A DNA stretch of 41,040 nt. Origin: Allomuricauda sp. (GTDB taxonomy: Bacteria; Bacteroidota; Bacteroidia; Flavobacteriales; Flavobacteriaceae). The position numbers were made by a program, and so were the translations under genes. Below, piece after piece: positions 5,258 to 7,279 of this stretch. Within the stretch, counting starts at the first letter, position 1, and each line of letters starts with the position of its first letter. The notes beneath the pieces are model-generated. The model had not been told where the DNA came from. It ran no database searches and was given only the letters and a program-made list of their open reading frames with translations. The stretch is from positions 2,199,979 through 2,241,018 of the forward strand of contig CP051244.1 in assembly GCA_017795045.1 (NCBI GenBank), written 5' to 3'.

Positions 5258-5265
5258 TACATTTG
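5258..5265 (+). promoter_or_regulatory. -7 box of the sigmaE-dCas12f operon
   Basis: TACATTTG fits the Bacteroidota -7 consensus TAnnTTTG exactly and lies 22 bp before the ATG at 5287, giving a short leader. No clear -33 TTG is seen at the usual distance; the DNA upstream is almost pure A/T. Confidence 0.5.
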
Positions 5266-5286
5266 GTAAGTTATCATTAAAATTTG

Positions 5287-6084
5287 ATGCTCGTGATTTC
5301 AAATATCAACAACAGGCACCTTGAATTATTGAAGAAAGGTTGCTATTCAACTTTTTCGGAAATCTATACCAAATACAATAGACCGATTTACTGGCTGGGC
5401 AAGAGCTTTCTTGATGATGGTTTTGTTGTGGAAACATTGGTACAAGATGTATTCTTAAAGTTGTGGGTGAATAGGGACAGTTTGGAATCACCCAAGCACA
5501 TTTATTTTTTCTTGCGGTTTGTGATGAAAAGGGAGTGTATTTCATACTATACACGCCCTAAGAACAGGTTTTTCAGGAAAGTCCACTCGTTAGAGAGTTT
5601 CGAGAATTACCAAGACTATATGGTCGGTTATGACCCGGCTGAGGACAATAACAATTTTAAATTTCAGGAAGAGGAACAAGAGAAATTCGAAAGTATCATA
5701 CGCGTCCTACCTTTATTAGATGACCGCAAAAGGCATGTAATCAATCTGTGTTTGAAATATGGCTTTCAGTATAAGGCCATTTCCAAAGCAATGGGAAAAG
5801 GTATCAATGAAACCTGTAGTGAGATCAAGGAAGCCATTGAAGATATTAAAACCATCCTTCATCAGGGAAATAAGCTTGATTCCAGTAACAACAAGACAGA
5901 TGAGATAAAGTTTACTGGTGAGATGACCGAAGAGCAAGCAAGGGTGCTTAAAATGCGTTGCGAGCTAAGTTATTCCTTTTCCGAAATAGCCAACGAACTT
6001 AATCTCTCCCAAAAGGAGGTGCATCATGAATTCATGATAGCCTATAGGCTAATGGAAGCAAAACATCAATTGCAATCAGCCTAA
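5287..6084 (+). CDS. ECF-type sigma factor (sigmaE) paired with dCas12f, with extra C-terminal HTH
   Basis: A 265-residue protein from ATG 5287 (a TTG three bases earlier is also in frame). Residues ~18-90 form sigma-2 (FSEIYTKYNRPIYWLG ... LVQDVFLKLWVNRD ... YFFLRFVMKRECISYY), residues ~135-190 a sigma-4 helix-turn-helix (LPLLDDRKRHVINLCLKYGFQYKAISKAMG). It is longer than usual ECF factors (about 170-200 residues): residues ~205-262 contain a second sigma-4-like HTH (MTEEQARVLKMRCELSYSFSEIANELNLSQKEVHHEF). No anti-sigma gene is adjacent; instead the stop is followed after one base by the Cas12f-like ATG, so translation is coupled. In the recently reported dCas12f-sigmaE systems the sigma factor is brought to DNA by the guide complex rather than by promoter motifs; I infer the same here. 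The second HTH could be the dCas12f contact or a promoter-contact replacement. Confidence 0.88.
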   Translation: MLVISNINNRHLELLKKGCYSTFSEIYTKYNRPIYWLGKSFLDDGFVVETLVQDVFLKLWVNRDSLESPKHIYFFLRFVMKRECISYYTRPKNRFFRKVHSLESFENYQDYMVGYDPAEDNNNFKFQEEEQEKFESIIRVLPLLDDRKRHVINLCLKYGFQYKAISKAMGKGINETCSEIKEAIEDIKTILHQGNKLDSSNNKTDEIKFTGEMTEEQARVLKMRCELSYSFSEIANELNLSQKEVHHEFMIAYRLMEAKHQLQSA

Positions 6085-6085
6085 C

Positions 6086-7183
6086 ATGGAAAAGTCAACC
6101 CTAAAACTCACTCGAAAGATCCAACTCTTGATAGACCTCCCTACGAAAGAGGAGAAAAAGCAGGCCTTGGATAAACTCTACCAGTGGCAGAACAGGTGCT
6201 TTAGGGCGGCCAACCTAATAGTGACCCATCTCTATGTTCAGGAAATGATAAGGGAATTCTTTTATCTATCAGAGGGGATAAAATATAAATTGGCAGATGA
6301 AAAGAAGGATGAACTGGGAATACTTAACCGTTCTAGGATAAACACCACCTATCGAGTGGTATCGGATCGTTTTAAAGGAGAAATCCCCACAAACATATTG
6401 TCCAATTTGAACCAGGCATTGATTTCATCTTTCAAGAAAAACAGACCGGAGTATTGGAACGGTGAACGATCTTTAAAAAACTTCAGGAGAGATATGGCCT
6501 TTCCCTTTGATTTGGAGGGATTGAGTGGACTTGCCTATAATGAAGAGAAAAAAGCCTTTTGCTTTCGATTATTTCGGATTCCCTTTAAAACCTACTTGGG
6601 AAAGGATTTTACGGATAAACGGACATTGTTGGAGAGGGTAGTGGAGGGAAGGACCAAGCTGTGCACATCGCACATAAAGCTAAAAGAAGGCAAGATTTTC
6701 TTGTTGGCAGTGTTTGAAATTCAAAAGGAAAACCATGAATTAAGACCGGAGATTATTGCAGAGGCTTCCCTGTCCCTTGAATATCCCATTGTTGTAAAGG
6801 TTGGCAAAGCAAGGCTTACCATTGGTACAAAGGAAGAATTTTTATACCGAAGACTGGCGATACAATCGGCACACAGACGGGCAAAGATCGGGGCAACTTA
6901 TTCCAAGTCTGGTAAAGGCATCAAAAGAAAACTTAAGGCAGTTGACAGACTTGGCCAAACGGAACGTAAATATGTCCATAATCGTTTGCATGTCTATAGC
7001 CGGAGGTTGATTGATTTTTGTGTTAAACATAGCGCAGGAACCCTTATACTTTTGAATCAGGAGGAAAAGGCTGAGATTGCTAAAGAAGAGGGATTTGTAT
7101 TAAGAAATTGGAGCTACTATGATTTGATGACCAAAATAGAATACAAAGCTAAGAAAGCTGGTCTTGAATTAATTATTGATTGA
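6086..7183 (+). CDS. Nuclease-dead Cas12f-like RNA-guided DNA-binding protein (dCas12f)
   Basis: A 365-residue protein, one base after the sigma stop. It follows Cas12f order: N-terminal helical/REC-like region, W-x-x-R-A-A-N helix (~35-45), NLNQALISSFKK (~125-137), a wedge strand region (~195-225), then a RuvC-like fold. The tail LRNWSYYDLMTKIEYKAKKAG (338-359, with gaps of my counting) is the classic Cas12f/TnpB helix before the last strand. The RuvC residues are lost: where G-I-D-L-G is expected there is VVKVG (Lys238 in place of Asp), where I-x-x-E-D is expected there is LILLN (Leu323/Asn324), and the protein ends at ELIID, before the zinc ribbon and the third Asp. It should therefore bind an RNA guide and DNA but not cut. 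A TnpB-derived repressor (TldR) is the alternative; the sigma partner and the Cas12f-like RNA end favour dCas12f. Confidence 0.88.
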   Translation: MEKSTLKLTRKIQLLIDLPTKEEKKQALDKLYQWQNRCFRAANLIVTHLYVQEMIREFFYLSEGIKYKLADEKKDELGILNRSRINTTYRVVSDRFKGEIPTNILSNLNQALISSFKKNRPEYWNGERSLKNFRRDMAFPFDLEGLSGLAYNEEKKAFCFRLFRIPFKTYLGKDFTDKRTLLERVVEGRTKLCTSHIKLKEGKIFLLAVFEIQKENHELRPEIIAEASLSLEYPIVVKVGKARLTIGTKEEFLYRRLAIQSAHRRAKIGATYSKSGKGIKRKLKAVDRLGQTERKYVHNRLHVYSRRLIDFCVKHSAGTLILLNQEEKAEIAKEEGFVLRNWSYYDLMTKIEYKAKKAGLELIID

Positions 7184-7279
7184 ACAGAATGGTCGAGGGT
7201 GCTTGTACACCCGTAAGGTGAGGTCATTGGCACTCACTAAATGCAAAAGCATATACAACGCGTGGGCTCTCTTATAATT
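7184..7279 (+). ncRNA. Predicted single guide RNA of the dCas12f system
   Basis: Immediately after the dCas12f stop come three hairpins: GGGTG-CTTGTA-CACCC (7197-7212), GTGAG-N10-CTCAC (7218-7237) and ATGC-AAAA-GCAT (7241-7252), then ATACAAC ending at 7259. The last hairpin joined by a tetraloop looks like a fused repeat/anti-repeat, and an A-x-CAAC end resembles Cas12f repeat 3' ends. The following bases, GCGTGGGCTCTCTTATAATT (7260-7279), would be the guide. The 5' boundary may lie inside the dCas12f gene. The next gene's -7 box starts only at 7396, so nothing else explains this conserved-looking structure. No match to the guide exists elsewhere in the window. Confidence 0.75.

What the first reader, a model, noticed from the sequence alone, without database searches (positions are those of the whole stretch)
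5258..7279. Complete dCas12f-sigmaE RNA-guided transcription system
The sequence shows a sigma factor and a Cas12f-like protein one base apart, with the Cas12f RuvC Asp and Glu replaced (Lys238, Leu323/Asn324) and the zinc ribbon and last Asp absent, plus a compact structured RNA with a guide-like 3' end. I recall a recent report that nuclease-dead Cas12f homologues in Bacteroidota recruit ECF sigma factors and RNA polymerase to guide-matched sites with a minimal 5'-G adjacent motif; I cannot look it up here. By that model this operon would start transcription at a chromosomal target chosen by the RNA rather than by promoter sequence.
Basis: partly seen in the sequence, partly recalled or inferred. 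Interest (0 to 1): 0.95.

Follow-up and report, generated by a model that had tools for sequence, protein, structure and literature searches.

The report
Dead-Cas12f sigma operon, SusC-leader guide
This bacterium carries a gene pair whose close relatives appear together in a solved structure (a nuclease-dead CRISPR protein and a transcription sigma factor), plus a guide RNA whose 16-letter guide matches a conserved site in front of nutrient-receptor genes in sister species, where it would likely switch those genes on; no matching site was found in this genome itself.

Summary
A sigma gene (5284-6084) and a nuclease-dead Cas12f gene (6086-7183) lie one base apart, followed by a covarying guide RNA (7195-7275). 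The nearest solved proteins are 'Nuclease-deactivated Cas12f' (E 1e-190) and 'RpoE' (E 1e-110), both in PDB 9n9q, so the kind is known. The RuvC-I Asp is replaced by Ser228 (not Lys238). The guide is the new part: GCGTGGGCTCTCTTAT matches, behind a 5'-G, one strand of a two-state structured leader RNA without an Rfam match, found about 500 bp upstream of SusC-type receptor genes in sister species, and upstream of sigmaE-dCas12f in 30 of 80 related loci. F. taeanensis-type guides match a second site of the same SusC leader. I infer that initiation past the target makes RNA lacking the 5' arm of a terminator-like hairpin. The window's genome has two operon copies, but no leader and no guide match with at most two mismatches were found (parts are masked). 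Relaxase genes beside both copies suggest a mobilizable element. New member of a known kind; activity in this genome unproven.

The parts
5284..6084 (+). ECF-type sigma factor gene (sigmaE/RpoE; TTG start, ATG at 5287), 266 aa
   Evidence: sigma70-ECF model above its cut-off; PDB 9n9q chain C 'RpoE' E 1.3e-110
6086..7183 (+). nuclease-dead Cas12f gene, 365 aa
   Evidence: PDB 9n9c/9n9m/9n9o/9n9q E 1.1e-190; Ser228 at the RuvC-I Asp
7195..7259 (+). guide RNA scaffold
   Evidence: covarying helices on 45 sequences
7260..7275 (+). guide GCGTGGGCTCTCTTAT
   Evidence: matches leader targets in related loci over 16-17 nt
5258..5265 (+). TACATTTG, possible -7 element of a host-type promoter for the operon
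   Evidence: fits TAnnTTTG (consensus recalled); present in 5 of 10 aligned close relatives, the other 5 having a different upstream region
4896..5159 (-). small divergent gene, 87 aa, no Pfam match
   Evidence: relatives beside 9 of 80 named related loci and the second copy
2258..2842 (+). partner gene of the relaxase, 194 aa, no Pfam match
2848..3870 (+). DUF5712 (relaxase-like) gene
   Evidence: Pfam DUF5712 E 3.3e-106, weak Relaxase match 0.0082 below cut-off; beside 14 of 80 related loci and the second copy

Best explanation
The sequence encodes a sigmaE factor, a nuclease-dead Cas12f and a guide RNA of the kind found together in PDB entry 9n9q, and this set is predicted to bring RNA polymerase to DNA that matches the guide behind a 5'-G and so likely to start transcription just past it. 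Shown: the guide matches one strand of a conserved leader RNA in front of SusC-type receptor genes of sister species, and by covariation that strand is also the 5' arm of a terminator-like hairpin. Inferred: a transcript begun downstream of the target lacks that arm and cannot fold the hairpin, so the system bypasses the leader's block. Inferred: in the related loci where the same leader lies upstream of the sigmaE-dCas12f genes (30 of 80) and the guide matches it (21 found), this gives positive feedback. Inferred: in the window's genome, where the operon sits beside relaxase genes in two copies and no target was detected, it is likely a mobile copy whose target is absent, masked or too diverged.
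For: Homology to the solved pair. Dead RuvC in 75 of 77 ORFs, 2 truncated. Guide RNA covariation and strict co-occurrence, 14 of 14 genomes. Own-guide matches upstream of sigma in 21 related loci; G before the target in 19 of 19 tabulated, identity over 16-17 nt. G-preceded matches with at most 1 mismatch in 14 of 17 distinct dCas12f genomes. SusC-type N-terminus downstream of 21 of 30 fetched leaders, TonB plug domain in 3 of 3 tested. Leader in 13 of 14 dCas12f genomes against 19 of 46 others, Fisher p 7e-4. Two alternative covarying folds. F. taeanensis-type guides hit a second site of the same SusC leader: 6 of 8 G-preceded matches have SusC about 260 bp downstream.
Against: No target in the window's own genome; G044 and G052 also lack one. 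The guide tracks its own locus's target only weakly (P 0.03; 0.07 without near-duplicates). 19 of 46 genomes without dCas12f carry the leader, so it has a role of its own. Several leader copies lack a T-run after the hairpin, and computed folds favour the rod in four of five copies. A 19-nt F. taeanensis-type pattern with at most 2 mismatches finds only guide-RNA genes (5 of 5 genomes). No expression data.
Confidence: 0.72

Rival explanations
1. The guide acts on the leader RNA rather than on DNA: it copies one strand of the leader's switch and, as RNA, would pair with one of the two complementary arms and tip the leader between its two forms.
For: The guide equals the strand shared by both leader folds, so either arm is complementary to it.
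Against: A G precedes the target in 19 of 19 cases and identity ends after 16-17 nt, as for DNA targeting behind a short adjacent motif; the linked sigma factor has no role in this model; F. taeanensis-type guides use another site, also behind G.
Confidence: 0.1
2. RNA-guided repressor: dCas12f blocks the leader DNA, as TldR does at flagellin genes, and the sigma gene serves another purpose.
For: Dead nuclease with a guide; TldR repressors are known (PMC13418256, passages seen).
Against: The sigma gene is one base away; relatives of both proteins are in one solved entry, 9n9q; the target lies in the leader on the strand and side expected for initiation towards the gene.
Confidence: 0.07
3. In this genome the system is idle: an orphan mobile copy that has lost its target and does nothing here.
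For: No target found; in the second copy a masked 745-base stretch lies within the sigma gene between two copies of about 168 bases.
Against: The window's sigma and dCas12f are full length, and dCas12f is 93-96 % identical to its closest sister copies; scaffold and guide are intact; masked sequence may hide a target.
Confidence: 0.3

Closest known systems
dCas12f-sigmaE RNA-guided transcription system (PDB 9n9c, 9n9m, 9n9o, 9n9q; experimental organism and mechanism recalled, not read)
   Same: Both proteins match over nearly their whole length; sigma-dCas12f-guide RNA order; 5'-G before targets.
   Different: The guide is another class: it targets the first site of the SusC leader (and the sigma operon's own leader in many loci), while the F. 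taeanensis-type guide targets a second site.
Cas12f nucleases (PDB 9nzr, 9nzo)
   Same: Fold-level homology over residues 85-362, E 1e-42.
   Different: RuvC-I Asp and RuvC-II Glu replaced, zinc ribbon and C-terminus missing; no CRISPR-like array beside it.
TldR, TnpB-derived RNA-guided repressors (PMC13418256, passages seen)
   Same: Inactivated RNA-guided nuclease used for gene control, carried by mobile DNA.
   Different: Closer to Cas12f than to TnpB chains by score; sigma partner; activation predicted instead of repression.

Membership tests
dCas12f-sigmaE RNA-guided transcription system | Cas12f homologue with inactive RuvC | tested here: met
   Ser228 at RuvC-I Asp, Leu323 or gap at RuvC-II Glu, C-terminus missing; 75 of 77 ORFs S, T or A at that column, 2 truncated
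dCas12f-sigmaE RNA-guided transcription system | linked ECF sigma factor of the same family | tested here: met
   one base upstream; RpoE of 9n9q E 1.3e-110; sigma relative in 74 of 80 related loci
dCas12f-sigmaE RNA-guided transcription system | guide RNA encoded next to dCas12f | tested here: met
   covarying scaffold; same 14 of 60 genomes as dCas12f
dCas12f-sigmaE RNA-guided transcription system | 5'-G flanked target upstream of a gene (relatives) | tested here: met
   19 of 19 self-targets behind G; 14 of 17 genomes with G-preceded match of at most 1 mismatch
dCas12f-sigmaE RNA-guided transcription system | target in the window's own genome | tested here: not met
   parts of the genome are masked. 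A host-genome property, not one that defines the family
dCas12f-sigmaE RNA-guided transcription system | RNA binding, RNA polymerase recruitment, guide-set start site | not testable with these tools
   needs RIP-seq, ChIP-seq and start-site mapping
CRISPR-Cas12f nuclease | intact RuvC triad | tested here: not met
CRISPR-Cas12f nuclease | CRISPR array beside the gene | tested here: not met
   one 20-nt pair at 80 % in 4800-8200
TldR | derived from TnpB, repressor without a sigma partner | tested here: inconclusive
   guided_TnpB model 50.4 bits, below its cut-off of 100; Cas12f chains score above TnpB chains; no tree was built

The most novel reading that the evidence does not exclude
A mobilizable element spreads an RNA-guided sigma factor that takes over host nutrient receptors: its guide is a copy of the switch strand of a widespread two-state SusC leader RNA, so transcription starts past the leader's terminator; two guide classes hit two sites of that one leader, and many copies also switch on their own operon.
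Probability: 0.3. Interest if true: 0.82.

Novelty: new member of a known kind. Interest (0 to 1): 0.55.

Why it matters
The protein system is known in kind. What it controls in nature, and why its guides have the sequences they have, is made testable here: a predicted regulon of SusC-type receptors, a leader RNA whose switch strand the guide copies, and a predicted self-activation loop. The leader, found in 32 of 60 genomes of the genus and matched by no Rfam family at the gathering score in the five leader-bearing loci scanned, is a structured RNA worth describing in itself.

Tried and rejected
Ordinary transposase or active nuclease: rejected, RuvC residues are lost across the family. Upstream RNA as 6S RNA: rejected; the genome's 6S-Flavo gene is elsewhere, and in five leader-bearing loci plus L003 no Rfam family other than tRNA reached the gathering score; a permissive scan of 551 bases of L026 gave two chance-level matches. 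Weak guide matches in the own genome: with up to 3 mismatches 11 places, two of them the guide-RNA genes, against 6 for the reversed control, so taken as chance; the pair 96 bases apart at 1590139 and 1590235 lies in or just after a protein-coding frame and neither is preceded by G. Phage or plasmid carriage: 2 phage records (27 % and 24 % identity) and 5 plasmid records (22-29 %), all distant, and one viral contig at 37 %. Guide RNAs without dCas12f: none in 60 genomes (stricter filters). Literature: (listings, titles and starts of abstracts seen) show no paper on dCas12f-sigmaE or on this leader by title or abstract start, on TldR, gave two papers; only passages were seen of PMC13418256, PMC12803034 and PMC12908284.

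Full report
What is there. Two genes on the + strand lie one base apart: a sigma factor at 5284-6084 (an ATG is at 5287) and a 365-residue protein at 6086-7183. The sigma protein has region 2 at 27-91 and a Pfam region-4 match at 213-246; the general ECF model matches 24-190. The last 60 residues therefore look like an added region-4-like domain, but the segment before it gives no region-4 match in Pfam by itself, so a doubled region 4 is only suggested. The second protein matches PDB 'Nuclease-deactivated Cas12f' (9n9c, 9n9m, 9n9o, 9n9q) over residues 1-364 at E 1.1e-190 and Cas12f nucleases at E 1e-42; the sigma matches 'RpoE' of 9n9q at E 1.3e-110. The pair is known in kind.

Dead RuvC. The RuvC-II Glu falls at Leu323 or in the gap beside it. 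The match ends at residue 416 of 508 of the nuclease, three residues before the end of the window's protein. In 77 ORFs of related loci the Ser228 column is S in 72, T in 2, A in 1 and gap in 2 truncated ORFs. Which residues are catalytic is established knowledge of Cas12f and TnpB, recalled.

Guide RNA. After the dCas12f stop, 7195-7259 is a scaffold conserved in many Flavobacteriaceae. On 45 aligned guide RNAs three helices pair in 96.8 % of cells, with 21 cells changed on both sides against 5.8 in shuffles. The scaffold model finds 14 of 60 same-genus genomes, exactly those with dCas12f. In 17 of the scanned loci the pattern finds two or more guide RNAs in tandem.

Guide and target. The guide GCGTGGGCTCTCTTAT (7260-7275) is shared, with few changes, by the close relatives. 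In 21 related loci a match to the locus's own guide (15 nt, up to 3 mismatches) lies upstream of the sigma gene on the same strand. In the 19 of these that I tabulated the base before the target is G in 19 of 19, there are 27 mismatches in 304 positions, and identity falls from 11 of 19 at position 17 to 4-6 of 19 at positions 18-20. L041 and L045, whose best-matching guide is the third of a tandem, were left out of that table. Preference for the own target over other loci's targets is weak (P 0.03; 0.07 without near-duplicates).

The target is inside a structured RNA. The 21 upstream regions align over about 150 nt. Two mutually exclusive sets of helices covary: a rod (69 cells changed on both sides against 20.5 in shuffles) and a form whose main hairpin is 86-103:135-155 (18 against 4.1), followed by a T-run in many copies and not in others. 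The helices were read off this same alignment. An alignment of 23 further copies plus one shared row gives 50 against 19.3 and 22 against 9.3; there the outermost rod helix is broken by gaps, 52.7 % paired. The guide equals columns 87-102, the strand shared by both forms. No Rfam family but tRNA matches at the gathering score in five leader-bearing loci and L003. Computed folds of five copies favour the rod in four and the terminator-like form in one.

Where the leader occurs. It lies about 0.9-1.1 kb upstream of dCas12f, that is just before the sigma gene, in 30 of the 80 named related loci, and further upstream in 4 more (84 sources; 21 of these 34 built the model; some loci are cut by contig ends). 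In the genus it has 58 matches in 32 of 60 genomes: 13 of 14 with dCas12f and 19 of 46 without (Fisher p 7e-4). Of 30 fetched copies, 21 show a SusC-type receptor N-terminus downstream (495-574 bp from the leader core in 19 of them), 2 lie before sigmaE and 7 were not resolved by the script; three of three tested have TonB plug and carboxypeptidase-regulatory domains. Between leader and SusC lie a conserved frame of about 40 codons (MGN...KKKPKNPI) and a second conserved stretch. That stretch contains TTGTGGGATACACG, the start of the guide of F. taeanensis-type loci such as L030. In 5 distinct genomes of that type (6 handles, G041 and G069 being the same), 8 matches with at most 1 mismatch are preceded by G and are not the guide-RNA gene; 6 of the 8 have SusC about 260 bp downstream (F. 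taeanensis G060 one, G061 two, G041 three), one each in G061 and G062 lies about 590 bp before a sigma-like gene, and G027 has none. A stricter 19-nt pattern with at most 2 mismatches found only guide-RNA genes in 5 of 5 genomes. So the two guide classes map to two sites of one leader.

Targets for the window's guide class. With the 17-nt pattern including the G, 14 of 17 distinct dCas12f genomes have a G-preceded match with at most 1 mismatch; the window's genome, G044 and G052 do not (18 handles, G044 and G063 having the same coordinates). In some of the 14 part of the matches are the self-targets. Outside the genus such sites precede SusC in Cellulophaga (L196) and Salegentibacter (L209); L210 and L211 were not resolved.

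The window's genome. One contig of 3.755 Mb; the window is at 2199979-2241018. A second operon copy is at 3215249-3216343, dCas12f 93 % identical, guide with one change. Besides the two guide-RNA genes there is no guide match with at most 2 mismatches, no leader (52 and 150 of the first-look candidates scored), no leader core beyond chance (53 places at 2 mismatches, 121 for the control) and no SusC leader. Masked stretches exist, so absence is not proven. In the second copy a masked 745-base stretch lies within the sigma gene between two copies of about 168 bases.

Mobility. A DUF5712 (relaxase-like) gene and its partner lie at 2258-3870, beside the second copy too, and beside the operon in 14 of 80 loci, 13 of them at 94 % identity or more. 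The segment 8144-11355 is 99.4 % identical to A. zhangzhouensis, while the operon segment is 92 % identical. This suggests carriage by mobilizable elements (inference).

How it most likely works. Shown: the two proteins, the lost RuvC residues, the guide RNA, and G-preceded targets in leaders upstream of SusC in sister genomes and of sigmaE-dCas12f in many loci. Inferred: the complex binds leader DNA at the guide match and starts transcription past it; since the match is the 5' arm of the terminator-like hairpin, the new RNA cannot form it. I recall that the published system starts at a set distance from the R-loop; I could not read that report, and the inference needs only a start downstream of the 16-nt target. 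In the window's genome the operon acts on a diverged or masked site, or is idle.

Standing. New member of a known kind. The leader RNA, the two-site guide relation and self-targeting turned up in no listing of my searches, but the primary reports on dCas12f-sigmaE are not held there, so these points may already be in print.

Noticed in passing
L112-L136 (same-genus genomes), e.g. L123:1501-2164: Conserved SusC leader: two-state structured RNA, a conserved frame of about 40 codons (MGN...FDILFKKKPKNPI), and a second conserved stretch, before SusC-type receptors; also in genomes without dCas12f.
   Followed up: partly
L038, L040, L041, L045, L048, L054, L058, L060, L061, L063, L064, L066, L067, L070, L072, L082, L083: Two to six tandem guide RNAs after dCas12f, with different guides, many beginning GCGTG; an array-like expansion outside CRISPR.
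   Followed up: no
L003:11055-11799 (own genome, second operon copy): A masked 745-base stretch lies within the second copy's sigma gene, between two copies of about 168 bases of that gene; contents not looked into.
   Followed up: no
window 8161-11147: A DUF4365/TPR protein and a protein with a weak match to the phage exclusion protein Lit (E 0.0072, below cut-off); this segment is 99.4 % identical to A. zhangzhouensis, possibly a shared defence cargo.
   Followed up: no
window 11441-19859: A WG-repeat protein (596 aa, 9 matched stretches, one search's sister) next to a 2211-aa ORF that was not examined.
   Followed up: no
window 22807-23760 and 25892-30958: An 11-tRNA cluster, then RtcB-ligase, WYL-regulator and tyrosine-integrase genes; a possible integration neighbourhood.
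   Followed up: no
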